A stretch of DNA of 32,120 nt from Pseudoflavonifractor sp. 60 (lineage in GTDB: Bacteria > Bacillota > Clostridia > Oscillospirales > Oscillospiraceae). This document shows positions 1,431 to 24,655 of this stretch, in pieces. Position 1 is the first letter of the stretch. The number at the start of each line of letters is the position of its first letter. The position numbers were made by a program, and so were the translations under genes. The DNA is taken from assembly GCF_009911645.1 (NCBI RefSeq), contig NZ_QWKI01000157.1, forward strand, positions 1 to 32,120, written 5' to 3'. A model generated the notes under the pieces. It searched no databases and was not told the origin of the DNA. It saw nothing but the letters and a program-made list of their open reading frames with translations.

Positions 1431-1496
1431 TCAAAGGGCACCCGCAAGCGGAGTGCCGCAATGGGGGCAGAGTTTGGAGACGTCTTTTTCAGCCAT
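1431..1496 (-). CDS. Tiny zinc-ribbon ORF (21 residues)
   Basis: An ATG at 1496 stands behind a good ribosome-binding site (AAGGAG, about 1506-1511), 18 bases after the stop of the beta-helix gene. It opens MAEKDVSKLCPHCGTPLAG and stops at 1431. CPHCG is half of a zinc ribbon like those starting the beta-helix protein and the LRR kinase here. A TGAGATG junction follows, the same arrangement as between the kinase and beta-helix genes, so this may be the 5' end of a further operon gene cut off by the MobC-bearing scar. No function can be assigned to the peptide alone. Confidence 0.4.
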   Translation of the reverse strand: MAEKDVSKLCPHCGTPLAGAL

Positions 1497-1514
1497 TTTT
1501 CTGTGCTCCTTCTT

Positions 1515-2762
1515 TCACTCAAAAATCGCGTTGGCGATGCTCACCTCGTGGCCGCAGCGGTTGTCGATGTCGGTGCTGTTGCGGGAGAAGCGGGTGCCGT
1601 CAAAATACAGGGCCTGGTCGCTGGGGACACTCTCCAGCAGCACGGCGGTCTCGTTGCCCTGAAACAGGTTGCCGCTGTACATGTGGTCGTTTGGGTTGTC
1701 GCTGACGGAGTTGAAGTGGAAACCCACGGCGTTGTTCTCAAAGACGCAATTTTTGGCATTAACCCAGGAGTCGCCATAGCACAGCACCCCAGTGCGCCAC
1801 CCGGACAGGCGGCAGTCGGTAAAGTTGATCCGGGCGGAGGCGGATACCCCAACGCCCTCTCCGCCACCCACAAAGTCGATGCCGTTGAACTGGCAGATGT
1901 AGCCCTTCTGGGCAGTGGCCTGGAGGGTGTCGGTGAAGGTGGTCCGGCTCCCGTCCGGGCTTTCGCTTCCCACCAGGTTCATGGACCGCCCCTCCAGCAC
2001 TAAGCTCCCCTCGTAGGTGAGGGCGGGCAGGTGGAGGTAGACGATGATATTGGCGGGAATAGTCTCGTTGACCTCATCTACCAGGAACTGAAGGTCCTCC
2101 ATAGTGTCCATCGGTGCGTCCTCTGGGTAAAAGTGCCGGGTGGGGACCACCCCCAGCACCATCCGCTGGTACAGGTGGATGGTGTCGCCGTTCTGCATAC
2201 GGATAGTCCAGCGCAGCTCCATATCGCCGCTGTGGCCGGTGTAGGTGAGGATGCTGGCACGGGCGGCCTCCGGGGCGAAGTCGTAGACCTGAGGGGGCGT
2301 ATACTGCCAGGGCTCGGGGCCGTCGCTCCCCTGAAGAAGCTCCACGGTGATATCTTCCACCTTGCGCAGGAAGGCCTCCTTGGCGTTGACTCCGGTGTCC
2401 ACATGGTTGACGAACAGGCGGGAGGGCTTGTTGGCGGTGGTCCCCTCCTCCAACTCCTCCGAGTAGTCGGTCATGGGCTGGAATCGGTCGCCGAAATAGT
2501 TGAGGAGGAGCTGATAGGAGCCGCCGCTGTCGGTGTAGATCACTTCAGCGGTGCCGTTGTCGTAGACCTTGGGCCGGGTATAGAGCCAGGCCGTCAGCAC
2601 CGCAGCCAGGACAAGGAGGACCATCAGGGCGCTCTGGAGCGCCCGCCCAGGCAGCCGCCTGGGCGGATGAATTTCCCGGCGGTCGTTGACGCTCCGGGCG
2701 CAATGAGGACAAAAGGACGCCTCCTTGTGGATGGAGGCGGAGCAGTGAGGACAGGATTTCAT
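1515..2762 (-). CDS. Zinc-ribbon, single-TM protein with extracellular beta-helix
   Basis: A 415-residue protein. Residues 1-21 form a zinc ribbon with two CPHC pairs (C4, C7, C18, C21). Residues 43-61 are one transmembrane helix (ALMVLLVLAAVLTAWL), and the rest should be outside. Residues 230-415 carry short repeating turns rich in N, G and F (INFTDCRLSGW, NCVFENNAVGFHF, NLFQGNETAVLL), typical of right-handed parallel beta-helix folds of the pectate-lyase/NosD type. No carbohydrate-active residues are evident. The ATG is one base after the stop of the Ser/Thr kinase gene, so the two are co-translated. The protein is probably a membrane partner or substrate of that kinase, with the beta-helix as an outside binding or sensing module. 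The zinc ribbon resembles that of the LRR kinase at 4024. Confidence 0.75.
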   Translation of the reverse strand: MKSCPHCSASIHKEASFCPHCARSVNDRREIHPPRRLPGRALQSALMVLLVLAAVLTAWLYTRPKVYDNGTAEVIYTDSGGSYQLLLNYFGDRFQPMTDYSEELEEGTTANKPSRLFVNHVDTGVNAKEAFLRKVEDITVELLQGSDGPEPWQYTPPQVYDFAPEAARASILTYTGHSGDMELRWTIRMQNGDTIHLYQRMVLGVVPTRHFYPEDAPMDTMEDLQFLVDEVNETIPANIIVYLHLPALTYEGSLVLEGRSMNLVGSESPDGSRTTFTDTLQATAQKGYICQFNGIDFVGGGEGVGVSASARINFTDCRLSGWRTGVLCYGDSWVNAKNCVFENNAVGFHFNSVSDNPNDHMYSGNLFQGNETAVLLESVPSDQALYFDGTRFSRNSTDIDNRCGHEVSIANAIFE

Positions 2763-2763
2763 C

Positions 2764-3471
2764 TCAAATCGCCTCCATCAGGTGCAGCACATCCTTGTAC
2801 CGCTTGGCCGGATTGACCTGGGTACACCGCTGGATCACCCGGCCCATCCGGCCCTCGGCCAGCCGCTTGGAGGGGTGCTGGCCGGTGAGCATCACATTCA
2901 TCAGCACCCCCAGGGAGTATATGTCCGTCCGGGTGTCCGACTGGCCCAGACCGTACTGCTCCGGGGCGGCAAAGCCGGTGGTGCCCAGAATCTGGGTGTC
3001 CGCCTCCGCCTCTGGCTTGTGGAGGCGGGCGGCGTCGAAGTCAATGAGCACCGCATCCCCTCCGCGCAGAATCACGTTCTCCGGCTTGATATCCCGATGG
3101 ACGGCGGCCATGGAGTGCAGCACCCACAGCCCCTGACACAGCTGCCGGATAACTCTCCTGGTCTCAGCGAGGGTGAACAGGGCCCCCTCCAGCAAAAAGT
3201 CCAAGGTGTCCCCCTGGATGAATTCCTCAATTACAATATTTTCCCCACTTTGCTCCGCCACCTCATAGACGGTGGGCAGATAGGGGCAGGAGCAGTCCAG
3301 CAGCCGTTGGTAGACCTCCCCATTGCCGGTAAAACGGCGGAGGATGAACTGCCGGACGGTGGCCCGATGCTGGATCAGCCGCACGCTGCCCCGGGGACTC
3401 TCTTTTAAAAGGCGGACCTCCTCAAATTCGGTCCGCAGTTGTTCTGACAGCCAGGAATAAATGACGATCAC
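2764..3471 (-). CDS. Small Ser/Thr protein kinase with altered ATP-site residues
   Basis: A 235-residue protein, essentially only a kinase domain and without a transmembrane helix. Visible motifs are HRDIKPEN (catalytic loop, residues 125-132), DFD at 144-146 in place of DFG, AAPEQY (168-173) and RTDIYSLG (181-188). The usual beta-3 lysine appears replaced by arginine (FILRRF, 42-47), and no clear glycine-rich loop is seen. The catalytic Asp is kept, so weak or unusual activity, or a regulatory pseudokinase, are both possible. The assigned start is a GTG at 3471, whose ribosome-binding site is poorly placed; a nearby non-standard start is conceivable. It is transcribed divergently from the XRE-kinase-FHA-PP2C operon, so it probably belongs to the same signalling system. 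Confidence 0.85.
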   Translation of the reverse strand: MIVIYSWLSEQLRTEFEEVRLLKESPRGSVRLIQHRATVRQFILRRFTGNGEVYQRLLDCSCPYLPTVYEVAEQSGENIVIEEFIQGDTLDFLLEGALFTLAETRRVIRQLCQGLWVLHSMAAVHRDIKPENVILRGGDAVLIDFDAARLHKPEAEADTQILGTTGFAAPEQYGLGQSDTRTDIYSLGVLMNVMLTGQHPSKRLAEGRMGRVIQRCTQVNPAKRYKDVLHLMEAI

Positions 3472-3583
3472 CCCAAAATTAAAACACTATGCAGCCAGCA
3501 TATTGTATCTGACGGCAGAGTTTTGTACAATTGTGACTATATTATATCTGCTTCTCTGAGAGAAGTAAAGGGGATGACGGGAT
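3472..3583. promoter_or_regulatory. Divergent promoter region with TTGTACAA palindrome
   Basis: These 112 bases separate the two signalling operons. For the minus strand, a -10 box TACAAT (3507-3502) lies 17 bp from a weak -35 inside the palindrome TTGTACAA (3523-3530). For the plus strand, AT-rich -10 candidates occur at 3538-3547 (TATATT/TATTAT) without a good -35. A palindrome between divergent operons is a natural operator, perhaps for the XRE protein encoded next door. Confidence 0.4.
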
Positions 3584-4009
3584 ATGAAGGAGAAGTCCAC
3601 CGGAGATTTGAGTCAGGAGCTGATGAACCAGCCCAACCTGGACCAGTATATCACAGAAAACGAGGCGTACTTCGCGGATGTGGACGTATCCACGTTTCTG
3701 ACAAATCTTTATGAGAAATGCGGCCTGTCCAAGGCGGAGCTGGCCCGGCGGGCGGAGATGAGCGAGGTCTACCTCCACCAGGTTTTTTCCGGGCGGCGCA
3801 GGCCATCCCGGGACCGGCTGCTGTGCCTGTGTGTCAGCATGGAGGTCAGTCTGGAGGATACTCAGCGGCTTCTGAAACAGGTGGGCTATGCCCCCATCTA
3901 TCTCAAACTGAAACGGGATGCCATCATTGGCCACGGCATTCTCCATCGCACGCCTCTGACGGAGGTCAACGACAAGCTGTTTTCCGAGAATGAAAAGACG
4001 CTGTTTTAA
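3584..4009 (+). CDS. XRE-type helix-turn-helix protein
   Basis: A 141-residue protein. After an acidic N-terminus (about residues 1-35) comes an XRE/Cro-like helix-turn-helix: LSKAELARRAEMSEVYLHQV (47-66), then a GRRRPSRDRLL segment. The C-terminal half (SLEDTQRLLKQVGYAPIYLK) is of a kind often found in XRE proteins of Clostridia. The ATG has an AAAGGGG ribosome-binding site. The stop is 14 bases before the LRR kinase gene, so it leads that operon and probably controls it and the divergent one through the intergenic palindrome. It has several Thr and Ser near the N-terminus, so it could be a phosphorylation target of the neighbouring kinases; that is only inference. Confidence 0.75.
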   Translation: MKEKSTGDLSQELMNQPNLDQYITENEAYFADVDVSTFLTNLYEKCGLSKAELARRAEMSEVYLHQVFSGRRRPSRDRLLCLCVSMEVSLEDTQRLLKQVGYAPIYLKLKRDAIIGHGILHRTPLTEVNDKLFSENEKTLF

Positions 4010-4023
4010 AGGAGGAGACCGCC

Positions 4024-6042
4024 ATGTCAGCCACCACTCAAACCCTCTGCTATAACTGTTTCCGGTCGATAGCCGACCCAGCCGCCCCCTGCCCCCACTG
4101 CGGCTTTGACCTGGAGGAGAACCGCCAAAAATTCCCGGTAGCCCTGCGGGCGGGAACCGTCTTAAATAACCGCTATATTGTGGGCCGGGTGCTGGGTCAG
4201 GGCGGCTTCGGCATCACCTATGTAGCCTTCGACACCCAGCTCCAGGCGAGAGTGGCAATCAAGGAGTATATGCCTAACGAGATCGCCACCCGTATCGAGG
4301 GCACCACCGTCTCAGTGGCTATGGACACCCGGGCGGACGACTTCACCTATGGCGCGGAGCGTTTCCAGGAGGAGGCCCGGACCCTGGCCAAGTTCATCGG
4401 CCACCCCAACATCGCGGGCGTGTCCAGCTACTTCGACCAGAACGATACCTCCTACTTCGTCATGGACTACATCGAGGGCGTGAGCTTCAAGAGCTACATC
4501 GCCAACAACGGCGGGAAGGTCAGCGTGGACGAGACGCTGAACGTGATGATCCCCGTCCTGCGGGCGCTGACAGCCGTCCACGCCGAGGGCTTCATCCACC
4601 GGGACGTGACCCCGGACAACATCTACATATCCAAGGACGGCAACGTGAAGCTGCTGGACTTCGGCTCGGCCCGGTACAGTATCGGGGACAAAAGCAAGAG
4701 CCTGGACGTGATCTTGAAGGTGGGCTACGCCCCCAAGGAGCAGTACATCCGCCGGGGCCGTCAGGGGCCCTACACCGACGTGTACTCCTGCGCCGCCTGC
4801 TTCTACGCCGCTTTGACGGGCTACTTGCCCCCGGAGTCTCTGGAGCGGCTGGACCACGACGAGCTGGTGCCCGTCTCCCAGGCGGGGGTGGACATCCCCG
4901 AGTGGCTGGACAAGGCGATTTTGAAGGGCCTGGCCGTCCAGCCGGAGGACCGGTTCCAGTCCGCCGCCGAGTTTTTGGACGCCATCGAGAACCAGCTGGT
5001 GGTGGACGTGCCCGCCGCCGGACAGACCGCCCCCGCCCCGCAGAAAAAACCCAAAACCGCCCTCATTGCCGGGGTCGCCGCGGCGCTGGTGGTGGTTGTG
5101 GGCGTGGGAGCCTTTCTGGCAGGCCGGGGCGGCGGGGGGATGTCCCCCGATTCCAGTGCCCCCGGGACCGGAGGCGGAGGGGGCGGCGGACTTATCCCCA
5201 TGATAGATATGCTGGGGCCCAAGGTCACCATTGCCGGACGAGAGTACAGCGCTAACGTGGAGGAGCTGGATCTGAACGATCTGGGCAGGATCAGCTTTAC
5301 CGAAGAGGACCTGCAAACCATTCAGGGTATGGCAAATCTGAAGCGCCTGAGAATGTATTCCAATTCAATGACGGATTTGCAGTGGGTATCGCAGATGACC
5401 CAACTGGAACAATTGGAGATCAGCGGAGAAAATGCGATCTATGAAAATCTGGATTTTCTGTCCGGGCTGACCGGGCTGGAGGTTCTGCGTCTGCCAATCA
5501 CGGCTCAGGGAATGGGGTCCTATGATATCTCCGCTTTGGCAAATCTGACAGAACTGACTACCATCAGTATCCCGCACAGCGTCAAGGACCTGACGCCGCT
5601 GCAAAACTTGACCAAGCTGGAATCCCTATCTCTGGAAGACGGCTATATGTCTATGGAGAGAGACTCCTTTACCTCTTTGGAGCCGTTGAAAAATCTGGTC
5701 AATCTCAAAAGGCTGTACATCCGTGTGACCAGCAATATCGGCAAGGAACCGGTAGACCTGATGCCTTTGGCGGGGCTGACGAATATGGAGGACCTTTCCA
5801 TCAATGTAGACAACTATGTCCAGGAGAATGGCGTAATCTATTGTTCCATCTCCAGTCTGTCTGCGCTGTCTGAAATGCAAAAGCTGCAATCACTGACGCT
5901 GCGAGTTGGGGGATTGACGGATATCTCCCCCTTGCGAGAGCTGAAAAACTTAGATACTCTGATAATCAGCGATGTGAGTGGGGCGAAAATTACCGATTGG
6001 TCCCCGGTGGACCATGTGGCAACCGTTGTCGGAAGAGATTAA
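4024..6042 (+). CDS. Transmembrane Ser/Thr kinase: zinc ribbon, kinase, TM, extracellular LRR
   Basis: A 672-residue protein. Residues 9-26 form a zinc ribbon (CYNC and CPHC pairs). The kinase domain (about 50-320) has a glycine loop LGQGGFG (58-64), VAIK with Lys80, HRDVTPDN (192-199) and DFG (212-214). Thr in place of the catalytic-loop Lys is a variant seen in this bacterial kinase group, so activity is expected. A linker (QTAPAPQKK) leads to a transmembrane helix at 345-366, then a glycine-rich stretch. From about 410 to 672 come leucine-rich repeats (LANLTELTTISIP, LAGLTNMEDLSI, LRELKNLDTLII). The topology implies cytoplasmic kinase and extracellular LRR receptor. The LRR part is visibly lower in GC than the kinase part, suggesting domain acquisition or relaxed codon use. 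The AAGGAGG site precedes the ATG by a few bases. Confidence 0.93.
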   Translation: MSATTQTLCYNCFRSIADPAAPCPHCGFDLEENRQKFPVALRAGTVLNNRYIVGRVLGQGGFGITYVAFDTQLQARVAIKEYMPNEIATRIEGTTVSVAMDTRADDFTYGAERFQEEARTLAKFIGHPNIAGVSSYFDQNDTSYFVMDYIEGVSFKSYIANNGGKVSVDETLNVMIPVLRALTAVHAEGFIHRDVTPDNIYISKDGNVKLLDFGSARYSIGDKSKSLDVILKVGYAPKEQYIRRGRQGPYTDVYSCAACFYAALTGYLPPESLERLDHDELVPVSQAGVDIPEWLDKAILKGLAVQPEDRFQSAAEFLDAIENQLVVDVPAAGQTAPAPQKKPKTALIAGVAAALVVVVGVGAFLAGRGGGGMSPDSSAPGTGGGGGGGLIPMIDMLGPKVTIAGREYSANVEELDLNDLGRISFTEEDLQTIQGMANLKRLRMYSNSMTDLQWVSQMTQLEQLEISGENAIYENLDFLSGLTGLEVLRLPITAQGMGSYDISALANLTELTTISIPHSVKDLTPLQNLTKLESLSLEDGYMSMERDSFTSLEPLKNLVNLKRLYIRVTSNIGKEPVDLMPLAGLTNMEDLSINVDNYVQENGVIYCSISSLSALSEMQKLQSLTLRVGGLTDISPLRELKNLDTLIISDVSGAKITDWSPVDHVATVVGRD

Positions 6043-6059
6043 AAAGGAGGGATTTTACC

Positions 6060-6824
6060 ATGGCACAGATCGAATGCGGCCGGGGCCACCTCTACGACCC
6101 GGACAAGTACCCCGCCTGCCCCTACTGCAACGGCGGGCAGAAAATCACGGCGGTCTCCGCCGGACGGACCGCCCCCATTGGCCGCTCGGTGCTCTCGCCC
6201 AACCGGACCGCGCCGGTGGGCGGCACCGCTGTGACCGCGCCCAGTAAGACCGCGCCGGTGGGCGGGCTATCGGTGACCGCACCCCAGAAAACCGCCCCCC
6301 TGTCCGGGGCCATTCCGGTCACCGCCGCCCAGAAGACCGCCCCGCCCCGGGGCTACGGCGTCCCCCAGCCGGAGCCGGCCCAGACCGCTCCCCCGCCGGG
6401 CTTCGGCGTCAGCGTGACGGCGGCGGGCAAGACAGTAGGCATGATGCAGTCCCAGATGGGATTCGACCCGGTGGTGGGTTGGCTGGCCTGTGTGGCCGGC
6501 CCCAGCCGGGGCAAGAGCTACACCATCCGGGGCGGGATGAACTCCATTGGCCGCAGTGAGCGGATGGACATTGTAATCACCGGCGACCTGAAAATATCCA
6601 GCGAGAACCACGCCAAAATCAGCTACAGCGACAAGAAAAATCGCTTCAACATTCTCCCCGGCGAGGGACGGAACATCGTCTACCTCAACGACGAGGAGGT
6701 ATTCACCCCCATGCCGCTGAAGGCTTACGACCTCATCGACTTCGGGGAAACCAAGCTGCTGTTTGTCCCCCTGTGCGGCGAGCGATTCACCTGGAGGATG
6801 GAGGAGACGGATGGGACTGTTTAA
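6060..6824 (+). CDS. Soluble FHA-domain protein with tandem TAP threonine repeats
   Basis: A 254-residue protein starting at the ATG at 6060 behind AAAAAGGAGG. An upstream in-frame codon lies inside the kinase gene and is not a likely start. The N-terminus has C6, H10, C20 and C23, a possible small zinc site. Residues 36-126 carry a repeated motif: RTAPIG, RTAPVGG, KTAPVGG, KTAPLSG, KTAPPRG, QTAPPPG, KTVG, with Thr at 37, 50, 64, 78, 93, 109 and 125. Residues 140-240 form an FHA domain (GRSE at 164, SSENH at 180-184, YLND at 208), which binds phosphothreonine peptides. The repeats look like phospho-acceptor sites for the adjacent kinase, as in GarA-type proteins with an N-terminal phosphothreonine that binds the protein's own FHA. 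Its end overlaps the next gene by 14 bases. Confidence 0.9.
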   Translation: MAQIECGRGHLYDPDKYPACPYCNGGQKITAVSAGRTAPIGRSVLSPNRTAPVGGTAVTAPSKTAPVGGLSVTAPQKTAPLSGAIPVTAAQKTAPPRGYGVPQPEPAQTAPPPGFGVSVTAAGKTVGMMQSQMGFDPVVGWLACVAGPSRGKSYTIRGGMNSIGRSERMDIVITGDLKISSENHAKISYSDKKNRFNILPGEGRNIVYLNDEEVFTPMPLKAYDLIDFGETKLLFVPLCGERFTWRMEETDGTV

Positions 6825-7653
6825 GCTGTTTTCCCGGGAAAAGGCCAGGCCGCCGGAGTCTGAGCCACCGGCGGAGGAGTCGCCGGCCATCCGTGTGGCC
6901 AACGTCCAGGGCCAGGGGGAGCGGGAGCGACAGGAGGACTCCTTCGCCATTGTCAACGCCGCTGACCTGGAACTCCAGGAGACCCAGGGGCTGCTGGCCC
7001 TGGTGGCCGACGGCATGGGCGGCATGGAGGACGGCAAAGCCGCCAGCCAGTGGGCGGCGGAGTGCTTTCTCCAGCTGTTCCAGAAGCGGGAGTCAGAGGA
7101 CATCCCTGACTGGTTTTACCGCAGCGTCCACACTGTCAGCGACAGCGTGTTCCAGTGTTTTGGCGGCCGCAGCGGGACCACTCTGGTGGCCGTCCACATC
7201 CGGAAGGGGCTCCTCCATTGGCTCAGTGTGGGGGACAGCGGGATTTTTCTCATGCGAAACGGCGGGGTCTTCCAGCTCAACCGGGAGCACACCTGCCTCA
7301 ATCAGCTTCTCTCCCAGGAGCTGGAGCGGGAGCCTATGGACAAACAGCGGGCCCTGTCCGACCCGGACGCCCCCCGGCTGACCTCCTTTGTGGGCATTGA
7401 CCGGCTGGCCGAGGTGGACCTGAGCCTGCGGCCCATGGAGCTGCAAAGAGGAGACGTACTCCTGCTGTGTTCCGACGGCATCAGCGGCGTACTCACCCCG
7501 CCCGAGCTGATGGAGTGTATGTCCCTGAAGCCGGAGGAGGGCTGTGCCCTGCTGGAGCAGATGGTTTTGGAAAAAGGCGTGTTAGGGCAGGACAATTACA
7601 CCGGTGTTTTGATCGCGTATCAATCATCAGAAAGAATGGAGAGCTGTAAATGA
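6811..7653 (+). CDS. PP2C-family Ser/Thr protein phosphatase (first copy)
   Basis: A 280-residue metal-dependent phosphatase of the PP2C/PPM type. The start at 6811 has a GGAGGA site and overlaps the FHA gene by 14 bases; earlier in-frame starts give a basic tail read from FHA coding sequence. Motifs are RQEDS (40-44), VADGMGG (65-71), RSGTT (120-124), VGDSG (140-144), CSDGIS (220-225) and DNYTG (261-265), which together provide the aspartates that hold the two metal ions (D67, D222, D261). There is no transmembrane segment, so it is cytoplasmic and probably reverses phosphorylation by the neighbouring kinases. Its stop codon overlaps the protease start (ATGA), indicating translational coupling. 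Confidence 0.92.
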   Translation: MGLFKLFSREKARPPESEPPAEESPAIRVANVQGQGERERQEDSFAIVNAADLELQETQGLLALVADGMGGMEDGKAASQWAAECFLQLFQKRESEDIPDWFYRSVHTVSDSVFQCFGGRSGTTLVAVHIRKGLLHWLSVGDSGIFLMRNGGVFQLNREHTCLNQLLSQELEREPMDKQRALSDPDAPRLTSFVGIDRLAEVDLSLRPMELQRGDVLLLCSDGISGVLTPPELMECMSLKPEEGCALLEQMVLEKGVLGQDNYTGVLIAYQSSERMESCK

Positions 7654-8855
7654 AGCGGATTCATCATTTTGCCGTGGCGCTGCTGGCTGTGCTGGTCCTC
7701 AGCATAAGTGCCCTGCCAGCGTTTGCTGACTTTAACCAGGGTTCTTTGGACGGTATTGTCATGATTACCACCGGCGCGCCCGACCGGGACGGAACCATGA
7801 ATTATTGGCGGGGTACCGGCTTCTTTGTGGGAAAGGCAGGGGAAGATCCCCAGTACATCGTCACCAACTGCCATGTGGTGGAGGAGTTCATCCTGGCGGG
7901 CAAGGCGCTGGGGGGCGGGGAGCTCCACGTCCGCTTTGACAAGGACGACGAGGCGGAGGCCTACCTGGTGGACTACGATGCGGAGAAGGATGTGGCCATC
8001 CTCCGGCTGGCGGACGTCACAGACAAGCGGGTTTCGTTGCAGATGCGGGTCCCTCCCGAGGACAGTCTGGGCAGCGAAGCCTACGCCGTGGGCTACCCCG
8101 CCGCCGCCGACCTGACCGTTCAGGCGGTGAACTCCTTCAGCCAGAAGGACGCCACCGTCACCACTGGCAGCATCAGCCGCTTCCTCACCGAGAGCGGCAC
8201 CGGCCGCAAGCTGATCCAGACCGACGCATCCTTGGGGGGCGGCAACTCCGGCGGTCCCCTCATTGACGGCACTGGGGCGGTGATCGGCATCAACACCGCC
8301 GGCTCCAAGCTGGACTCCAACCTGTTCTACGCCGTCAGCGTGGCGGAGGTCCTGCCCCTGCTGGACAAGAACAGCATCCCCTATACCCTGACCGCTGAGG
8401 CCAAATCCGGCGGCAATACCATGCTCTATATGGGCATCGGCGCGGCGGTTGTGGCGGTGATTGTGATTGTGGCTGTAGTGCTGAGCAGAAAGAAGAAGCC
8501 CGTCCAGAGCGACCCGGAACAGAAGACGGAGAAGGGAGGGACCCCCGTCCTGCGCTCCATGGCCCCCCAGCACGGGGGGATGGTGGTCCAGCTCCACGGC
8601 CAGCCGGTGCAGATCGGCCGGGACGCGGCGGTCTGCCGCCTGGTCTATCAGGACGGCACCCCCGGTGTGAGCAATAAGCACTGTCAGGTGTACTTCGACC
8701 AGGGTCAGTTTGTGGTTACCGACCTGAACTCCACCTACGGCACCTTCCTGTCCAACGGACAGCGCATTGCCCCCAACACCCCGGTAAAGCTGCCGCCCAA
8801 GAGCTCCTTCTATCTGGGAGAGGCGGACAACACCGTCTATGTGGATCTGGAGTAA
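7650..8855 (+). CDS. Membrane trypsin-like serine protease with C-terminal FHA domain
   Basis: A 401-residue protein. Residues 1-26 are a signal peptide (cleavage near AFA-D). A trypsin/HtrA-like protease domain spans about 30-245 with His75 (TNCHVV), Asp114 (KDVAIL) and Ser200 (GGGNSGGPL), a complete triad. There is no PDZ domain. A transmembrane helix at 258-279 is followed by basic residues (SRKKK), placing the rest inside. Residues 308-401 form an FHA domain (IGRD at 322, VSNKHC at 340-345, NSTYGTFLSNG at 360-370). An outside protease thus carries an inside phosphothreonine reader, so cytoplasmic kinase activity could control protease clustering or activity, or the protease could report outside damage. 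Fifth gene of the operon, overlapping the previous gene by 4 bases. Confidence 0.92.
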   Translation: MKRIHHFAVALLAVLVLSISALPAFADFNQGSLDGIVMITTGAPDRDGTMNYWRGTGFFVGKAGEDPQYIVTNCHVVEEFILAGKALGGGELHVRFDKDDEAEAYLVDYDAEKDVAILRLADVTDKRVSLQMRVPPEDSLGSEAYAVGYPAAADLTVQAVNSFSQKDATVTTGSISRFLTESGTGRKLIQTDASLGGGNSGGPLIDGTGAVIGINTAGSKLDSNLFYAVSVAEVLPLLDKNSIPYTLTAEAKSGGNTMLYMGIGAAVVAVIVIVAVVLSRKKKPVQSDPEQKTEKGGTPVLRSMAPQHGGMVVQLHGQPVQIGRDAAVCRLVYQDGTPGVSNKHCQVYFDQGQFVVTDLNSTYGTFLSNGQRIAPNTPVKLPPKSSFYLGEADNTVYVDLE

Positions 8856-8858
8856 GCC

Positions 8859-9578
8859 ATGAGAATTTCAGCCTATTGCTTTACCAACCGGGGAGGCCGG
8901 GACCACAACGAGGACAGCGTGCGCTGCTTTGCCGGGGAGGGCTGGGGTGTCTTTGTGGTGGCCGACGGCCTGGGGGGGCACGGAAAGGGCGAGGTGGCCT
9001 CCGCCCTGGCGGCGGACATCCTCTTTCAGGGCTGCTTGGACAGCACCCCCGGCCATGAGGACCTGCTGGAGTTGTTCCAGCGAGCCAACGAGACGGTTAT
9101 GTCAGGACAGGGGGAGCCTGGCCAGGAGGAGATGAAGACCACCGCCGTGGTCCTGTCCATCGGCGGAGACCGGGCAGTATGGGGGCACATCGGAGATTCC
9201 CGGCTCTACCGCTTCTCCGGCGGGACGCTGACCCAGGAGACCCGGGACCACTCGGTCACCTTTATGAAGTATCTGGGCGGTGAGATCTCCTATATGGACA
9301 TCTGCCACGACGACGACCGGTCCAGTCTGCTGCGGGCACTGGGAAAACTGCCCTGCAAGCCCGAGGCGGGCCAGGCGGACCTGTTGCCCGGGGACGCCTT
9401 TCTGCTGTGCTCCGACGGCTTTTGGGAGTACGTCTACCGGGAGGAGATGCTGGCTGATCTGCTGAAATCGGAGACGCCGGAGCAGTGGGCACGGAATATG
9501 CTGCTGCGCCAAATCCGGCGCACACCGGAGAGGAACGACAATTTTTCCCTGATTTGCGTATTTGTGGAGGAGCTATGA
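8859..9578 (+). CDS. PP2C-family Ser/Thr protein phosphatase (second copy)
   Basis: A 239-residue PP2C phosphatase, close to the minimal size for the family. Motifs are RDHNEDS (14-20), VVADGLGGHGKGE (33-45), GHIGDSRLYRF, RDHS, CSDGFWEY and NDNFSLI. The sequence differs clearly from the first PP2C in the operon (no N-terminal extension, classic GGHG motif), so the two are old paralogues or separate acquisitions rather than a recent duplication. It is soluble. It starts 3 bases after the protease stop and its own stop overlaps the vWA gene start (ATGA). Two phosphatases with two kinases suggest paired opposing activities. Confidence 0.93.
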   Translation: MRISAYCFTNRGGRDHNEDSVRCFAGEGWGVFVVADGLGGHGKGEVASALAADILFQGCLDSTPGHEDLLELFQRANETVMSGQGEPGQEEMKTTAVVLSIGGDRAVWGHIGDSRLYRFSGGTLTQETRDHSVTFMKYLGGEISYMDICHDDDRSSLLRALGKLPCKPEAGQADLLPGDAFLLCSDGFWEYVYREEMLADLLKSETPEQWARNMLLRQIRRTPERNDNFSLICVFVEEL

Positions 9579-10990
9579 AAAAATTTGCATCCCTGGCCCT
9601 TTCCTTGGGGCTGGCCGTTGCGCTGTGCGTCAATGCCCTGGCCGCCGGCAGCGCGGAGATTGTCCGGGCCTTTGTCTGCGAGGGGACGCTGTACACCTAT
9701 GTGTCCATGGACGGGATGGAGAAGCCCGTCACCAAGGCGGAGGCCAAGGTGGGCGGGCAGACCTTCTCCGCCACCGGCCGGTTGGAGACCGTCCGTCAGG
9801 CGGGGGCTCCGGTGACCTGGCTGCTGCTGGTGGACAACTCTACCTCTATGCCCGCCTTTCGTGAGGAGACCGAGACCTTTGTCCAGGCGCTGTCCCAGTC
9901 CGGGGGGGAGAACACCCGCTTCATCTTGGCCACCTTCGGAGACGCTTTCAACGTTGTGGAGGAGGATGTCCCCGCCGGGGAGTTGGCGGAGCGGGTGGGG
10001 ACGCTCCCCTTCGACGAGAGAGTCACCCGGCTCCACACCGCCATCAGCCAGGCGCTGGACTATTTTGAGGAGACGCCCCGGGAGCGGAACGAGCTGCGGT
10101 GCATGGTGATTTTGTCCGACGCGGTGCAGTACGACCCCCAGGGAGGCGTGCCCTACGGGGAGCTGCTGGAGCGGGTGGAGCACTCCGATGTGATGCTCCA
10201 TTCGGTGGGGCTGGGGAAAGACCGGGTGTCATTGGACAGTTTGGGACGGTTGGCCTCCGCATCAGGCGGTATTCATCAGGAGGCGGATATCCGGACGGCG
10301 GAGGAGGCCGCTGTCCGGCTGGCTGAGAGCAGCGGCGGACTGTATGTCACCGGCTTTGACCTGTCGGGCTATCCCTCTGAGGGGGGCACAGAGCAGATAT
10401 CTGTCACCTTCGCCTCCGGCGGGGAACTGATTTGCCGGGCGGAGACAGAGGTGGAGATACCGGAACTGACGGACGCGCAGCCCGCCGTCGAGCCCTCGGA
10501 GCATCAGGAACCACCGGCCCAGACGCCCGGCGGCGGGGCCGGCCCGTCCGCCCCTGCCGCCGCCCAAAAGAGGCTGCCGGTTGGACTGATTGCAGGGATT
10601 GCTGCTGCGGTGCTGGCTGTTATAACTGCGGGAGCTGTACTTCTGCGGAAGAAACCCGCTGTTCCGAACAGCTCTGTCTGGCCGTCAGGGATCTATATGC
10701 GCCTGGAGCTGGTCCGGGGAGAACTGGACAGCGGACAGAACCAACAGGAACTGGAGCTGCTGGACGAACTGATAATCGGTGCCGATCCGAACTGCGATAT
10801 TGCGGTAAAAAGCGAAAATACCGCCCCCCGGCATGTTCGGCTGTTCTCTGTGGAGGGTGCGGTGTATGCAGAGGCGCTGAATACCTCCAGCGAGACACGG
10901 GTCAACGGGGAGGAAATTCAGAAGAGCCGGAGATTGCGCAGCGGGGATGAGATCACGGTAGGCAGTGCCGTAATTCGTCTGAAATTTTAA
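9575..10990 (+). CDS. Membrane vWA-domain protein with C-terminal FHA domain
   Basis: A 471-residue protein; the ATG at 9575 overlaps the previous stop and begins a clear signal peptide (MKKFASLALSLGLAVALC, cleaved near ALA-A). Residues 80-262 form a von Willebrand factor A domain with a metal-binding DNSTS site (87-91) and an aspartate after the fourth strand (LSDAV, 180-184). A Pro/Gly-rich linker (300-332) leads to a transmembrane helix at 335-357 and RKK, so the C-terminus is inside. Residues 398-468 read as an FHA domain (IIGADPNCDI, TAPRHVRLF, TRVNGEEI), more divergent than the other two. The architecture mirrors the protease: outside module, TM, inside phosphopeptide reader. Last gene of the operon; a T-run follows at about 11019, but no strong terminator stem is visible. 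Confidence 0.9.
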   Translation: MKKFASLALSLGLAVALCVNALAAGSAEIVRAFVCEGTLYTYVSMDGMEKPVTKAEAKVGGQTFSATGRLETVRQAGAPVTWLLLVDNSTSMPAFREETETFVQALSQSGGENTRFILATFGDAFNVVEEDVPAGELAERVGTLPFDERVTRLHTAISQALDYFEETPRERNELRCMVILSDAVQYDPQGGVPYGELLERVEHSDVMLHSVGLGKDRVSLDSLGRLASASGGIHQEADIRTAEEAAVRLAESSGGLYVTGFDLSGYPSEGGTEQISVTFASGGELICRAETEVEIPELTDAQPAVEPSEHQEPPAQTPGGGAGPSAPAAAQKRLPVGLIAGIAAAVLAVITAGAVLLRKKPAVPNSSVWPSGIYMRLELVRGELDSGQNQQELELLDELIIGADPNCDIAVKSENTAPRHVRLFSVEGAVYAEALNTSSETRVNGEEIQKSRRLRSGDEITVGSAVIRLKF

Positions 10991-21297: not shown

Positions 21298-21837
21298 TTG
21301 ACCCCAAAACTGATCGTCTACTACTCCCGGCGGGGAGAGAACTATGTGGACGGCCGCATTCAGAACCTGGCCGTGGGCAGCACGGAGATCGCGGCGGGTC
21401 TGGTGCGGATGCTGACCCAGGCGGACCTCTTCCGCATTGAGCCGGTGCAGGAATATTCTCCCAATTACTGCACCTGCATCGACCAGGCCCGGCAGGACCT
21501 GTACCACAACGTCCGGCTGGAGCTGAAGGGATTCCCGGACCGCTTCGGGGAGTATGAGACGGTCTACCTGGGCTACCCCAACCACTGGAACACCCTGCCG
21601 GTGGCGGTGATCTCCTTTGTGGAGCAGCTGGATTTCTCCGGAAAGACAATTTTCCCCTTCTGCATCCACGAGGGGGACGGCATGGGCCGCAGCGAAGCCG
21701 ACCTGCGCCGGCTGTGCCCCGGAGCCCGTATCCTTCCCGGCCTGCCCATCCGAAGCGCGGACGTGAAATACAGCATGGACGTGCTGGAGGATTGGCTGAA
21801 CAACACGAAATTGGAAAACCAGGAGGAATTGATATGA
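21298..21837 (+). CDS. Flavodoxin-like protein
   Basis: A 179-residue flavodoxin-family protein. It starts with TTG at 21298, seven bases after a very strong GGGGAGGTGA site. The N-terminal strand and loop (KLIVYYSRRGENYVDGR) are in the FMN-phosphate position. YLGYPNHWNTLP and TIFPFCIHEGDGMGRS are the two flavin-contacting loops of the flavodoxin_4 type. It is cytoplasmic and should carry one- or two-electron traffic through FMN. It is the first gene of an operon under 42-bp element copy 3. Its stop overlaps the next start (ATGA), coupling it to a lipoprotein that carries a second flavodoxin domain. Confidence 0.88.
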   Translation: MTPKLIVYYSRRGENYVDGRIQNLAVGSTEIAAGLVRMLTQADLFRIEPVQEYSPNYCTCIDQARQDLYHNVRLELKGFPDRFGEYETVYLGYPNHWNTLPVAVISFVEQLDFSGKTIFPFCIHEGDGMGRSEADLRRLCPGARILPGLPIRSADVKYSMDVLEDWLNNTKLENQEELI

Positions 21838-23522
21838 AACTCAAGAAATGGCTTTCTCTGGCCCTGGCGGGGGCAATGTCCCTGTCTCTGCTGGCCGGGT
21901 GTGATACGCCCCCCAATGACGGCACACCGGCACAAACGCCCGGTGGCCCCCAGGGTGAGGCGCAGCAGGAGGCGGTGTTGCCCGATGGCGCACTAGTCAT
22001 CAAGGAGCAGGGGATGTTCTCCGCAGGCGGCACGGTGCTGACCTCGGACGGCACCTTTGATGTCTCCAACTACTATATGTCCCGGGAGGGTTCCACCTCC
22101 CATGTGGACCACGCCAACGTGTTTTACCAGATCCCGGCGGAGGAGACCGGCCTGCCCATGGTGTTCCTCCACGGCTACGGCCAGTCCCGCATGGGCTGGA
22201 TGACAACCCCCGACGGCCGGGAGGGCTGGTCCGACCTGTTCCTGAAAATGGGCCACAGCGTATTTCTAATCGACCAGCCCCGGCGGGGTGAGGCGGGCCA
22301 GACCTCTGTGGCCGGGACCATCACCACCGAGCCCTCCGATCAGACCTGGTACACCCAGTTCCGCATCGGCACCTACCTGGACGGCCAGTTTACCCGCAAC
22401 GAGGGCTCCCAGTTTCCCGAGGGTGAGGAGGTCCTGGACCAGTTTTTCCGCCAGATGACCCCGGACACCGCCATGGACGCCGCCAACGGCGACCAGAACA
22501 TTGACGTGACCGTGGTAGCTCAGGCGGTTGCCGCCACCATTGACGAGGTCTATGAGCGCACCGGAAAAGGCTCCATCCTGGTGACCCACTCCCAGGGTGG
22601 GATGCCTGGCTGGGAGACCGCCCGGTACACCGACCACATCGCCGCCATTGTGGCCATCGAGCCGGGCATGGCCCCCATGGTGGACAGCGAGGATTACAAT
22701 GCCCTGCTGGCGAAAAACATTCCCGTCACCTTCTACTACGGCGACTATATCGGCCCGGAGTTCACCGGCGTTCCGGCGGCGGGGATGTGGGGGATGATGT
22801 CCTCTACCGCCGACGCCTTCACCGCGGCCTACACCGCAGCGGGCGGACACAGCACCATCGTCCGTCTGCCCGAGGAGGGCATTACCGGCAACGACCACTT
22901 TATGTTCCAGGACCTGAACAACGATGTGATTGCCAACCATGTGGAGGCCTGGATTCAGGCCAACGTGAGCTCCGACGGCGGCAGCGGTGCGGTGGTGTCC
23001 AGCCCCGCCCCCGCTGAGCCCTCCAACAGCGAGGGCGGCAAGACCCTGGTGGCCTACTACTCCGCCACCGGCAGCACCCAGGCGGTGGCCCAGACCATCG
23101 CCGACACCACCGGCGGCGACCTCTTCGAGATCGTCCCCGCCGAGCCCTACACCTCCGCCGACCTGGACTGGACGGACAGCGACAGCCGGGTCAGCCAGGA
23201 GCATGACGACCCCGCCCTGCGCAGCGTGGCGCTCACCGCTGATACGGTGGACAACTGGGACGACTACGACACGGTGTTCATCGGCTATCCCATCTGGTGG
23301 GGCATCGCCGCCTGGCCCACGGACAGCTTCGTCAAGGCCAACGACTTCACCGGCAAGACGGTGATTCCCTTCTGCACGTCCTCTTCCTCCGGCCTTGGGG
23401 AGAGCGGTGAGCTGCTGGCCCAGCTGGCCGGCGCCGGAAATTGGCTGGAGGGCCAGCGGTTCCGCAGCAGCGTCAGCGCGTCGGACGTGACCGATTGGGT
23501 CAACGGACTGGGCCTTTCCTAA
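21834..23522 (+). CDS. Lipoprotein fusing an alpha/beta hydrolase to a flavodoxin domain
   Basis: A 562-residue protein with a lipoprotein signal (SLLAGC, anchor Cys23). Residues about 60-385 form an alpha/beta hydrolase: FLHGYGQSRMGW is the oxyanion segment, THSQGG holds nucleophile Ser253, and a His occurs near GNDHFMF. Residues 402-560 form a flavodoxin domain (TLVAYYSATGSTQ, FIGYPIWWGIAAWP, PFCTSSSSGLGESG). The signal puts both domains outside the membrane, where a flavin carrier is unusual for a flavodoxin. The flavodoxin half is nearly the same at DNA level as the C-terminal half of the next gene. The hydrolase may act on a bulky ester and the flavodoxin on a redox-active product, possibly in extracellular electron transfer; that is inference. 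Confidence 0.87.
   Translation: MKLKKWLSLALAGAMSLSLLAGCDTPPNDGTPAQTPGGPQGEAQQEAVLPDGALVIKEQGMFSAGGTVLTSDGTFDVSNYYMSREGSTSHVDHANVFYQIPAEETGLPMVFLHGYGQSRMGWMTTPDGREGWSDLFLKMGHSVFLIDQPRRGEAGQTSVAGTITTEPSDQTWYTQFRIGTYLDGQFTRNEGSQFPEGEEVLDQFFRQMTPDTAMDAANGDQNIDVTVVAQAVAATIDEVYERTGKGSILVTHSQGGMPGWETARYTDHIAAIVAIEPGMAPMVDSEDYNALLAKNIPVTFYYGDYIGPEFTGVPAAGMWGMMSSTADAFTAAYTAAGGHSTIVRLPEEGITGNDHFMFQDLNNDVIANHVEAWIQANVSSDGGSGAVVSSPAPAEPSNSEGGKTLVAYYSATGSTQAVAQTIADTTGGDLFEIVPAEPYTSADLDWTDSDSRVSQEHDDPALRSVALTADTVDNWDDYDTVFIGYPIWWGIAAWPTDSFVKANDFTGKTVIPFCTSSSSGLGESGELLAQLAGAGNWLEGQRFRSSVSASDVTDWVNGLGLS
23040..23510 (+). repeat. Duplicated flavodoxin-domain DNA, copy A
   Basis: This stretch aligns without net insertion or deletion to 24179-24649, at a constant offset of 1139 bases. 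Long runs are identical or differ only at third codon positions, for instance around GTGGGGCATCGCCGCCTGG. Confidence 0.8.
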
Positions 23523-23548
23523 AAAACAAACAAAAGGGAGCGATTCAA

Positions 23549-24655
23549 ATGAAAAATGTAAAACGGTTTTTGTCCCTGCTGCTGTCGGCAGTTATGCTGC
23601 TGGCTGTGGCCCCTGCCGCCCTGGCGGCGGAGTTCACCGACGTGAGTGCCGATGTCTGGTACGCCGACGCGGTGAACTATGTCACCGAACACAACCTGAT
23701 GGACCCTGCCGGCAGTACGAGCTTTGCCCCTGACGCCGAGGCCAGCCGGGCCGCGCTGGCGGTGGCCCTCTACCGGGCCGCCGGAAGCCCCGCTGTTGGG
23801 GCGGCGGACTTTACTGATATCCCCGCCAACAGCCCCTACGCCAGCGCCGCCGCCTGGGCCAAGGCCAACGGTGTGATTGCCAGTTACGCTGACGACCGCT
23901 TTGGCGGCGAGGACCCCATAACCCGGGAACAGATCGTCACCATCCTCTGGCGGTACTCCGGAAGCCCCGCGGCGGAGCAGGGACAGGATTTTACTGATGA
24001 GTCCGCTATCTCCTCCTACGCATCCCAGGCGGTGGACTGGTCCCGGGCCAACGGGATCGTCAGCGGCTACACCGATGGACGGTTTGACCCCCAGGGGCAC
24101 ACCACTCGCGCTCAGCTGGCGGTGATTCTCCGGGGATACCTCACCGCCAATCAGCCCAGCACCCCCAACACCGGCTCCCGTACCCTGGTGGTCTACTACT
24201 CCGCCACTGGCAGCACAGAGCGGGTGGGCGGCTACATCGCCGACGCCCTCAACGCGGATACCTTCGAGCTGATCCCCGTCACCCCCTACACCTCCGCCGA
24301 CCTGAACTGGACCGACCCCTCCAGCCGGGTCAACGACGAGCATGACGACCTGTCCCTGCGGGATATCGCCCTGGTCTCCACGGCCCCGGACAACTGGGCG
24401 GACTACGACACGGTATTCATCGGCTACCCCATCTGGTGGGGCATCGCCGCCTGGCCGGTGGACAATTTCGTCAAAAACAACGACTTCACCGGCAAGACGG
24501 TGATCCCCTTCTGCACTTCCTCTTCCTCCGGGCTGGGTCAGAGCGGTGAGCTGCTGGCCGAGATGGCCGGTACCGGAACCTGGCTGGAGGGCCAGCGGTT
24601 CTCCAGCGGCGCTCCCCAGAGCCAGGTGACCGACTGGGTTAACAGCATCCGATAA
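23549..24655 (+). CDS. Surface protein: three SLH domains plus flavodoxin domain
   Basis: A 368-residue secreted protein starting at the ATG at 23549 (AAAAGGGAG site). The signal peptide is residues 1-27. Three S-layer-homology repeats follow at about 29-77, 87-140 and 147-199 (FTDVSADVWYADAVNYVTEH, FTDIPANSPYASAAAWAKAN, VSGYTDGRFDPQGHTTRAQL), which bind pyruvylated cell-wall polymers. Residues 212-368 are a flavodoxin domain with the YYSATGSTE phosphate loop and GYPIWWGIAAWP. A flavodoxin attached to the cell wall is not a standard architecture and suggests extracellular redox work. It follows the hydrolase-flavodoxin gene by 26 bases and probably shares its promoter. Its flavodoxin half arose by duplication of the previous gene's, or the reverse. 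Confidence 0.9.
   Translation: MKNVKRFLSLLLSAVMLLAVAPAALAAEFTDVSADVWYADAVNYVTEHNLMDPAGSTSFAPDAEASRAALAVALYRAAGSPAVGAADFTDIPANSPYASAAAWAKANGVIASYADDRFGGEDPITREQIVTILWRYSGSPAAEQGQDFTDESAISSYASQAVDWSRANGIVSGYTDGRFDPQGHTTRAQLAVILRGYLTANQPSTPNTGSRTLVVYYSATGSTERVGGYIADALNADTFELIPVTPYTSADLNWTDPSSRVNDEHDDLSLRDIALVSTAPDNWADYDTVFIGYPIWWGIAAWPVDNFVKNNDFTGKTVIPFCTSSSSGLGQSGELLAEMAGTGTWLEGQRFSSGAPQSQVTDWVNSIR
24179..24649 (+). repeat. Duplicated flavodoxin-domain DNA, copy B
   Basis: Partner of 23040-23510. Copy B is fused to SLH repeats instead of a hydrolase, so the duplication shuffled one domain onto two different anchors. Confidence 0.8.

What the first reader, a model, noticed from the sequence alone, without database searches (positions are those of the whole stretch)
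1431..10990. Complete kinase-phosphatase-FHA system with four different outside modules
Two divergent, tightly coupled operons encode two Ser/Thr kinases, two PP2C phosphatases and three FHA domains. They also encode four single-span membrane proteins whose outside parts are a beta-helix, leucine-rich repeats, a trypsin-like protease and a vWA domain. Cytoplasmic parts are kinase, FHA or zinc ribbon. Seen: gene order, overlaps (ATGA, TGAGATG) and motifs. Known: FHA domains read phosphothreonine, PP2C removes it, and vWA-PP2C-kinase triads (TerY-P type) occur in bacteria. Inferred: one transmembrane surface-sensing or surface-proteolysis system steered by phosphothreonine. I know of no description of this exact set.
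Basis: partly seen in the sequence, partly recalled or inferred. Interest (0 to 1): 0.85.

Follow-up and report, generated by a model that had tools for sequence, protein, structure and literature searches.

The report
Kinase-controlled tethered surface protease system
A conserved set of neighbouring genes in gut Clostridia appears to let receptor-like protein kinases control, from inside the cell and through phosphothreonine readers, a protease held on the outside of the membrane; the sensing parts look exchangeable, and no description of the set was found in the papers searched.

Summary
Window 1515-10990 carries two divergent, tightly packed operons with the named domains, plus a missed HTH gene (3584-4009). 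Order C-D-E-F-G-H (receptor kinase, FHA, PP2C, trypsin-TM-FHA, PP2C, vWA-TM-FHA) is kept in 13 of 14 close loci as far as contigs reach; the A-B arm is narrower. Best reading: a transmembrane phosphothreonine circuit controlling a membrane-tethered envelope protease. Strongest evidence: in 6 of 101 loci with D, F's place holds an unrelated PrsW protease that also ends in FHA; a tree of the core forces at least 3 such changes among the first 4. All 47 protease loci of that tree lie on one side of a supported branch; 4 genomes on the other side have a T7SS ATPase nearby. Close C kinases are 93-98% identical while their ectodomains are mostly 35-44% and disagree with the kinases. Corrections: H's FHA lost its phosphothreonine Arg, B looks like a weak or pseudo-kinase, vWA here is extracellular, so this is not TerY-P. 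Against: the trypsin triad is dead in 4 loci, the Thr array is clade-specific, substrate and stimulus are unknown, nothing was assayed. A new variant of a known kind (kinase/PP2C/FHA control).

The parts
1515..2762 (-). A: zinc ribbon (cytoplasmic), TM 37-64, outside part with an all-beta (Ig/PKD-like) region and a C-terminal probable right-handed beta-helix
   Evidence: homologues L035, L036 and two copies in L101
2764..3471 (-). B: small cytoplasmic kinase-like protein; HRDIKPEN kept, DFD instead of DFG, no Gly-rich loop, Arg at the VAIK Lys (FILRRF in window, L035, L036, L101; the distant L108 has a Lys next to it)
3472..3583 (.). divergent intergenic region; sigma-70-like matches on the - strand at 3569-3541 and 3529-3502
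   Evidence: consensus matches only
3584..4009 (+).
4024..6042 (+). C: zinc ribbon - Ser/Thr kinase (HRDVTPDN) - TM 342-371 - leucine-rich-repeat ectodomain
6060..6824 (+). D: zinc ribbon - Thr-rich repeats - FHA, cytoplasmic hub
6138..6464 (+). D linker: eight T-x-P sites, four of them T-A-P-[I/L/V], candidate phosphothreonine array with aliphatic +3 residue
   Evidence: 4 matches to T-x-P-[LIVM] against 0.36 expected; 0 of 2000 shuffles reach it
6811..7653 (+). E: PP2C phosphatase, metal-binding Asp residues kept
7650..8855 (+). F: signal peptide - trypsin/HtrA-type protease with complete triad (TNCHV, DVAI, GNSGGP), no PDZ match - TM 254-283 - cytoplasmic FHA with R, S and H of the binding site
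8859..9578 (+). G: second PP2C phosphatase
9575..10990 (+). H: signal peptide - vWA (DNSTS, MIDAS-like by recall) - TM 332-359 - degenerate FHA (Arg replaced by Ala)

Best explanation
A transmembrane phosphothreonine circuit whose output is a membrane-tethered envelope protease. C senses something outside through its exchangeable LRR ectodomain and phosphorylates cytoplasmic threonines, in this clade chiefly the T-A-P-[I/L/V] array of the hub D. The FHA domain of F (and D's own) binds those phosphothreonines, gathering or switching the protease F whose catalytic domain lies outside; F then cuts a membrane-proximal target, plausibly a system ectodomain (A, H or C) or another surface protein, in the manner of a site-1 protease. 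PP2Cs E and G reset it. H (vWA) and A (beta-helix) are further outside modules; B and the HTH protein are regulators. Shown: gene set, order, domains, topology by hydropathy, residues, conservation, replacement of the protease, disagreement of ectodomains and kinases. Inferred: which threonines are phosphorylated, FHA-D binding, control of F by it, substrate and stimulus.
For: (1) Conserved unit: of 61 D loci, E in 60, G in 53, kinase in 52, trypsin- or PrsW-FHA slot in 47 (32 of the 46 found through D alone); in 40 further loci of the class and phylum sets, trypsin-FHA in 17 and PrsW-FHA in 2. (2) Slot kept while the fold changes: PrsW-FHA by Pfam in L108 and L113, by a profile built from these in L165, L169 and, with those two added to the profile, L235, L236; EExxK, FxxxE and GGH/GAH (motifs recalled) present on reading in all six. 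Tree of D+E+G, protease left out: PrsW label changes 4 times, at least 3 forced; L108 (PrsW) pairs with L164 (trypsin) at 98, L165 with L168 at 95. In L165 all three triad residues of the trypsin-FHA are replaced (read) and a PrsW-FHA gene is next to it. (3) Triad complete in 43 of 46 aligned trypsin domains and 14 of 17 further ones. (4) FHA domains of F and related proteins keep Arg in 58, Ser in 66, His in 66 of 66. (5) Thr array in 12 of 30 D linkers. (6) Kinases 93-98% identical, ectodomains mostly 35-44% and non-congruent. (7) PP2C metal Asp kept in 61-62 of 62 E and 55-59 of 59 G domains.
Against: Trypsin triad is dead in L165, L225, L249 and L255; only L165 has a PrsW neighbour, so proteolysis is not needed everywhere. 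The Thr array is absent or reduced to 0-2 motifs in 18 of 30 D linkers (one, L038, cut by its contig), so it cannot be the general switch. H's FHA keeps Arg in 8 of 17 and not in the window; D's FHA keeps Arg in 60 but His in 53 of 62. 14 of 61 D loci and 21 of 40 in the wider set have no tethered protease, several of them with kinases (for example L176, L187, L230, L250). 15 of the 61 loci were found through F, which inflates the protease share. No sigma/anti-sigma pair was recognised among the window proteins scanned. No substrate, stimulus, phosphorylation or binding was tested.
Confidence: 0.5

Rival explanations
1. It is a detached regulatory arm of a type VII secretion system: kinase, PP2C, FHA and vWA-FHA act on an EssC elsewhere in the genome.
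For: The same genome has a T7SS locus (EssC with FHA, WXG100-like protein, RHS protein) with its own vWA-TM-FHA and PP2C next to each other, 27% and 31% identical to H and G. Protease-less relatives lie within 15 kb of EssC in G151, G394, G489 and G285. Published T7SS variants carry kinases, PPM phosphatases and FHA proteins (PMC11217815, passages and section 8).
Against: Carriers of the close cluster G010, G027, G026 and G013 have no match to an EssC query at E 1e-30 (G010 and G027 are 98% complete). In one search (60 genomes) long matches to the C161 EssC are in G000, G016 and G037 only; other matches cover about 200 residues or fewer, mostly in SpoIIIE-sized frames, but two sit in frames of 1518-1585 aa (G024, and a second in G000) and were not resolved. 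Of 54 D genomes, none of the 41 with a protease locus has EssC on D's contig, against 4 of the 13 without; broken contigs limit this.
Confidence: 0.1
2. It is an anti-phage defence system in which phage sensing by the receptor ectodomain triggers protease-mediated killing.
For: Sporadic within the genus (close form in 8 of 37 genomes); exchangeable ectodomains; L037 flanked by a Type I restriction enzyme and a recombinase, L043 by a Type I methyltransferase and an AlbA/RecG-like protein that also matches an Argonaute-linked model. Single genes match PADLOC models: kinases PD-T4-6 and mad6, F RT-Protease_XI and LmuA, G PDC-M21C; kinases match NCBIfam MAD6 far under its cut-off.
Against: Those are single-domain matches; no PADLOC system is assembled. 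Of 10 flank proteins scanned from 6 loci, those from L036 (3), L044, L101 (2) and L102 matched nothing at 1e-10, L035 a DinG helicase model. Window flank proteins that matched a Pfam family are metabolic, regulatory or transport genes. No toxin or nuclease in the set.
Confidence: 0.15
3. It is an envelope-homeostasis or cell-wall signalling cluster like the PknB/PstP/FhaB arrangement, with the protease as a general HtrA-type quality-control enzyme. (This overlaps with the main reading.)
For: Kinase best NCBIfam model is PknB_PASTA, PP2C best model Stp1/IreP, F resembles HtrA/MarP models, all under their cut-offs; a third D arrangement (D, PP2C, 550-700-aa PP2C-like protein) is common in the wider set, 16 of 40 loci.
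Against: Accessory distribution (34 of 394 genomes of the order have D at E 1e-15); no PASTA match in C; no rodA or pbp recognised beside it among the proteins scanned; no PDZ in F; fast-changing ectodomains are unlike a housekeeping wall sensor.
Confidence: 0.2
4. The trypsin domain is mainly a scaffold or pseudo-protease sensor; the FHA protein acts by recruitment, not by cutting.
For: Dead triads persist in L165, L225, L249, L255; L235 and L236 carry further signal-peptide-TM-FHA proteins without a trypsin match.
Against: 57 of 63 aligned trypsin domains keep the triad (43 of 46; 14 of 17), and PrsW proteases replace it in 6 loci.
Confidence: 0.1

Closest known systems
T7SS variants c, e, f, j of Bacillota (kinase TsxD, PPM phosphatase TsxF, FHA protein TsxJ; PMC11217815, passages and section 8)
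   Same: Kinase with cytoplasmic N-terminal domain and TM, PPM phosphatase and FHA proteins in one cluster (the full trio not in every variant); control by phosphothreonine proposed there; sibling D-E-G-kinase clusters lie near EssC in 4 genomes
   Different: No EssC or WXG100 recognised in the window; TscE vWA is cytoplasmic whereas H's is outside; trypsin does not occur in the paper's main text; here the effector is an FHA-tethered protease
T6SS threonine phosphorylation pathway (PpkA, PppA, Fha; PMC5995506, passages)
   Same: Kinase, phosphatase and FHA reader form a post-translational switch; P. aeruginosa has a kinase fused to a vWA domain (PMC1262709, passages)
   Different: Gram-negative, output is the T6SS; here no T6SS gene was recognised and the vWA is on an FHA protein, not on the kinase
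Site-1 proteases DegS and PrsW of envelope-stress sigma systems (PMC4183432, passages)
   Same: The two proteases named there as starting regulated proteolysis in E. coli and B. subtilis belong to the two families that occupy the F slot
   Different: Neither is known with an FHA tail (recalled); no PDZ in F; no sigma/anti-sigma pair recognised here
Mycobacterial FhaA/FhaB/PstP/PknA/PknB cluster (recalled; PMC1262709 passages note FHA genes clustering with kinases and phosphatases)
   Same: Kinases, PP2C and FHA in one cluster; D, F and H FHA domains match the FhaB model under its cut-off
   Different: No rodA/pbpA recognised, no PASTA; extra protease, vWA and beta-helix
KKP (PfkA, PfkB, PfpC) kinase-kinase-phosphatase module (PMC11341870, passages)
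   Same: Two kinases and a PP2C, with an FHA domain involved
   Different: Gram-negative, mostly in prophages, FHA fused to a kinase; no protease or vWA part in the passages seen
Kinase-PP2C-vWA triads (TerY-P, recalled; also beside GAP1-N2 systems in PMC7159879, passages)
   Same: The three domain types occur together
   Different: There vWA is a stand-alone domain; here it is secreted, membrane-anchored and fused to FHA

Membership tests
Type VII secretion system (any variant) | Membrane ATPase EssC/EccC in the cluster | tested here: not met
   no EssC match in C252; G000's EssC is on C161; carriers G010, G027, G026, G013 lack one
Type VII secretion system (any variant) | WXG100 protein in the cluster | tested here: not met
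   a four-sequence WXG profile from C161 and G016 proteins gave no hit in window frames of 60 codons or more (search, tally); a small profile, so not exhaustive
T7SS kinase/PPM/FHA regulatory module | TM kinase, PPM phosphatase and FHA protein encoded together | tested here: met
T6SS TPP pathway | Kinase, PP2C and FHA protein together | tested here: met
T6SS TPP pathway | Controls a T6SS encoded nearby | tested here: not met
   no T6SS gene recognised among the window proteins scanned; F's FHA matches the TagH model at 1e-6, far under its cut-off
TerY-P / kinase-PP2C-vWA triad | Stand-alone cytoplasmic vWA protein (recalled) | tested here: not met
   H has signal peptide, TM and FHA tail
HtrA/DegS protease | Trypsin fold with Ser-His-Asp triad outside the membrane | tested here: met
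   outside position inferred from hydropathy
HtrA/DegS protease | C-terminal PDZ domain | tested here: not met
   no PDZ match in F; FHA there instead
FHA phosphothreonine readers | Conserved Arg, Ser, His of the binding site | tested here: inconclusive
   met in F; D keeps G-R (Arg 60 of 62) and mostly His (53 of 62) with Ser shifted by one residue in many; Arg not kept in the window's H
Hanks kinase, active | VAIK Lys, HRD Asp, DFG Asp | tested here: met
   C-type: Lys 83, HRD Asp 84, DFG Asp 84 of 86 aligned domains; the HRDxK lysine is S, T, A or C in 85. B fails the VAIK Lys in window, L035, L036, L101
Site-1 protease of a sigma/anti-sigma circuit | Cuts a membrane anti-sigma factor | not testable with these tools
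   no assay; substrate unknown

The most novel reading that the evidence does not exclude
A bacterial receptor-kinase recognition system with inside-out control of a surface protease: polymorphic ectodomains (LRR of C, beta-helix of A) are swapped between lineages on a fixed kinase/FHA/PP2C core, and one core drives interchangeable outputs, trypsin-FHA or PrsW-FHA protease in one branch and T7SS or Tad machinery in part of the other.
Probability: 0.3. Interest if true: 0.85.

Novelty: new variant of a known kind. Interest (0 to 1): 0.62.

Why it matters
If right, bacteria use eukaryotic-style phosphothreonine reading to switch proteolysis on the far side of the membrane, and a common gut lineage carries a modular receptor-kinase platform whose sensing and output parts can be replaced. 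The FHA-tethered protease, with two unrelated folds in one slot, gives a clear handle for work on what gut Clostridia sense and cut at their surface. It also suggests that the kinase/PP2C/FHA genes near some T7SS belong to a wider family not tied to secretion.

Tried and rejected
Chance adjacency: rejected by conserved order. Plasmid or phage origin: F has matches in 480 plasmid records, all under 60% identity, five of them covering 80% or more of F (rows seen at 26-29% identity); C has matches in 61 phage records, all under 60% and none covering 80%; no close copy, so no support for a mobile origin. T7SS coupling of the window's own system: disfavoured. Tad coupling: TadE lies on D's contig only in G065 among 54 genomes. 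PADLOC: single-domain matches only. AlphaFold model of A gave no convincing whole-protein match and the profile of A found nothing convincing in PDB sequences (one hit at E 0.86), so its beta-helix rests on Pfam hits of homologues. Flank clustering of 22 loci found no further gene shared by the window clade except the HTH gene; a 353-aa neighbour recurs in the other branch. Literature searches for the set listed 3, 4, 3, 15 (of 26,543), 0, 14, 0 and 0 papers; none listed was seen to describe it, but only passages of PMC11217815 (and its section 8), PMC7159879, PMC11341870, PMC1262709, PMC4183432 and PMC5995506 were read, and only open-licence PubMed Central is held.

Limits of counts: the 61 D loci are the window, 6 public contigs (of 7 found; L039 is left out because it holds no D, only F-G-H) and 54 stretches of 53 other genomes. 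The window, L035-L038, L040, L041 and 8 genus loci were found through F. 12 weakly matching family genomes were not fetched, nor two class loci (G919, G778). The D profile was built from protease-type loci and may miss others. Near-copies exist (L042/L043); many contigs are cut. Kinases and ectodomains were compared for 10 proteins of 9 loci only, L037 (two frames) and L042 (cut) left out. For A, paralogue sorting instead of exchange is not excluded, since L101 has two copies. The tree is a quick one with long branches (L115, L185, L187), 60 rows; L114 has no E and was dropped, L065 and L126 were not entered. In one search one VWA seed (L065) was cut out of frame and one query (F_try.2) was out of frame, stops set to X; neither feeds a count given here and that seed was left out when profiles were rebuilt. 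The regex triad check missed variants and was replaced by alignment.

Full report
Setting. The window is contig C252 of a 4.38-Mb assembly in 394 contigs. Close relatives of F lie in contigs titled Oscillospiraceae, Oscillibacter, Lawsonibacter and Firmicutes; that the class is Clostridia is inferred from these titles. The genome has four kinase matches, two of them here, and six FHA matches, three here and three on C161.

Anatomy. Leftward operon: B (kinase-like) then A (zinc ribbon, TM, outside part with a probable beta-helix). Domains; overlaps and hydropathy. vWA of H is below Pfam cut-off but the AlphaFold model finds integrin I-like domains. Beta-helix of A is below cut-off in the window protein and above it in two homologues; the model there is poor.

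Residues. F keeps the triad. Of 46 aligned trypsin domains 43 keep His, Asp and Ser; the others are a cut contig (L056), a partial second trypsin frame at the end of L107 and L165. Of 17 further ones 14 keep it; L225, L249 and L255 do not. FHA domains of F and related proteins keep Arg in 58, Ser in 66 and His in 66 of 66. D's FHA keeps Arg in 60 and His in 53 of 62. H's FHA keeps Arg in 8 of 17, not in the window. C-type kinases keep the VAIK Lys in 83 and HRD and DFG Asp in 84 of 86; the HRDxK lysine is S, T, A or C in 85. B has Arg at VAIK in the window, L035, L036 and L101 (FILRRF) and no Gly-rich loop; L108 has a Lys next to that position. PP2C metal Asp are kept in 61-62 of 62 E and 55-59 of 59 G domains (all).

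Conservation. Of 14 close loci (L035-L038, L040-L044, L052-L056) 13 keep the order as far as contigs reach; in L055 G is cut and H is missing. In the genus 8 of 37 genomes have the close form of F (70% identity or more, several cut by contig ends) and 5 of 37 a distant form. D was then searched in 150 genomes of the family (28 match at 0.001), 394 of the order (34 at 1e-15), 391 of the class (31) and 398 of the phylum (17). Stretches around D were fetched: 15 from the family, 31 from the order, 40 from class and phylum. In the 61 D loci (class and phylum not included) E is in 60, G in 53, a kinase in 52, a vWA protein in 17, trypsin in 44 and PrsW-FHA in 4 (L165 has both), together 47 with a protease slot and 14 without. 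15 of the 61 were found through F and so have it by construction; of the 46 found through D alone 32 have it. In the 40 class and phylum loci 17 have trypsin-FHA, 2 PrsW-FHA and 21 neither; 16 of those 21 show D, PP2C and a 550-700-aa PP2C-like protein.

The protease slot changes fold. In L108 and L113 the protein in F's place is a PrsW intramembrane protease followed by FHA (Pfam 3e-20 and 1e-19). L165 and L169, then L235 and L236, match a profile built from these and show the same motifs. In L165 a trypsin-FHA with all three triad residues replaced stands next to it. A tree of D-FHA, E and G, protease left out, puts all 47 protease loci on one side of a branch with support 97; the PrsW label changes four times, at least three forced. 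This is the main reason to think that a protease under FHA control is the selected function. The dead triads of L225, L249 and L255, without PrsW, speak against its being so everywhere. PrsW and DegS are the site-1 proteases of B. subtilis and E. coli envelope-stress circuits (PMC4183432, passages); the analogy is inference.

The other branch serves machines, at least in part. Of 54 D genomes 9 have an EssC match at 1e-30. It lies within 15 kb of D in G151, G394, G489 and G285, all without a protease; of 41 genomes with a protease locus none has EssC on D's contig, against 4 of 13 without (hand count; Fisher about 0.002 by hand, genomes not independent, contigs often short). G065 has TadE on D's contig, about 15 kb away, and L185 one Tad-like profile hit. 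For the other protease-less loci no machine was seen. The window's own genome holds, on C161, a T7SS with its own vWA-TM-FHA and PP2C, distant homologues of H and G (27%, 31%).

The sensors look exchanged. Among the window, L035, L036, L054 and L101, C kinase domains are 93-98% identical while ectodomains are 35-44%, except L035-L101 (66%). They also disagree: L036 has a kinase 98% like L054 and 85% like L044, but an ectodomain 38% like L054 and 65% like L044. A's outside part is 76% identical between the window and L101's first copy but 44% to L035, while its cytoplasmic and TM part is 57% and 60%; paralogue sorting is not excluded for A. Fast change and exchange of outside parts on a fixed inside core suggests recognition of variable ligands.

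Switch. D's linker in the window has four T-A-P-[I/L/V] motifs; FHA domains commonly select the residue three after phosphothreonine (recalled). 12 of 30 D linkers have three or more T-x-P-[LIVM], above shuffles (shuffle p at most 0.006, 2000 shuffles each); the other 18 have 0-2, one of them cut. So the array is a trait of the window's clade and L047, not of the family.

Novelty. Eight literature searches showed no description of the set among the papers listed; one search was too broad (15 of 26,543 shown). Nearest are the T7SS variants with kinase, PPM phosphatase and FHA components (PMC11217815, passages and section 8; trypsin is not in its main text), the T6SS threonine phosphorylation pathway (PMC5995506, passages), KKP (PMC11341870, passages) and kinase-PP2C-vWA neighbours in PMC7159879 (passages). 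I therefore call it a new variant of a known kind.

Noticed in passing
G000:C161, L065:2328-18093: T7SS locus of the same genome: EssC with FHA, a small FHA protein, WXG100-like protein (under Pfam cut-off), vWA-TM-FHA protein, PP2C and an RHS-repeat protein; G016 has an 81% identical EssC. T7SSc in PMC11217815 has a cytoplasmic vWA protein and a PPM phosphatase; a TM vWA-FHA fusion was not in the passages read.
   Followed up: partly
L111/L124 (G151), L177, L181, L182: Protease-less D-E-G-kinase-kinase clusters near an EssC ATPase; L110/L125 (G065) has the same cluster near Tad genes and a DUF6382-FHA protein.
   Followed up: partly
L108:7835-9139, L113:2374-3804, L165:12367-13683, L169:6336-7850, L235:5330-6769, L236:5575-7005: PrsW intramembrane protease fused to a C-terminal FHA domain.
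   Followed up: yes
L045:15035-16093 and relatives in L046, L047, L049, L104, L109: A 353-aa protein without Pfam match (L045 copy scanned) recurs next to the other branch of clusters.
   Followed up: no
L231, L237-L239, L241, L243, L246, L254, L256-L263; also L172, L173: A third arrangement, D - PP2C - 550-700-aa PP2C-like protein, without tethered protease.
   Followed up: no
L037:3734-8311: Gene B is cut to 41 residues beside a large serine recombinase gene; C and the HTH gene match in two frames; a Type I restriction subunit lies further out.
   Followed up: no
L055:1-531 (G022): Cluster remnant: end of F and a G cut after 124 residues, no H.
   Followed up: no
L101:16182-18720: Two tandem A paralogues, 44% identical to each other.
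   Followed up: partly
window 21298-24652: Flavodoxin domains fused to an alpha/beta hydrolase-like and to an S-layer homology protein in successive frames.
   Followed up: no
L049:4881-6933 and L102:13833-15769: A histidine-kinase-type protein (Pfam on the L049 copy) and a response-regulator-like protein recur beside two of the clusters.
   Followed up: no
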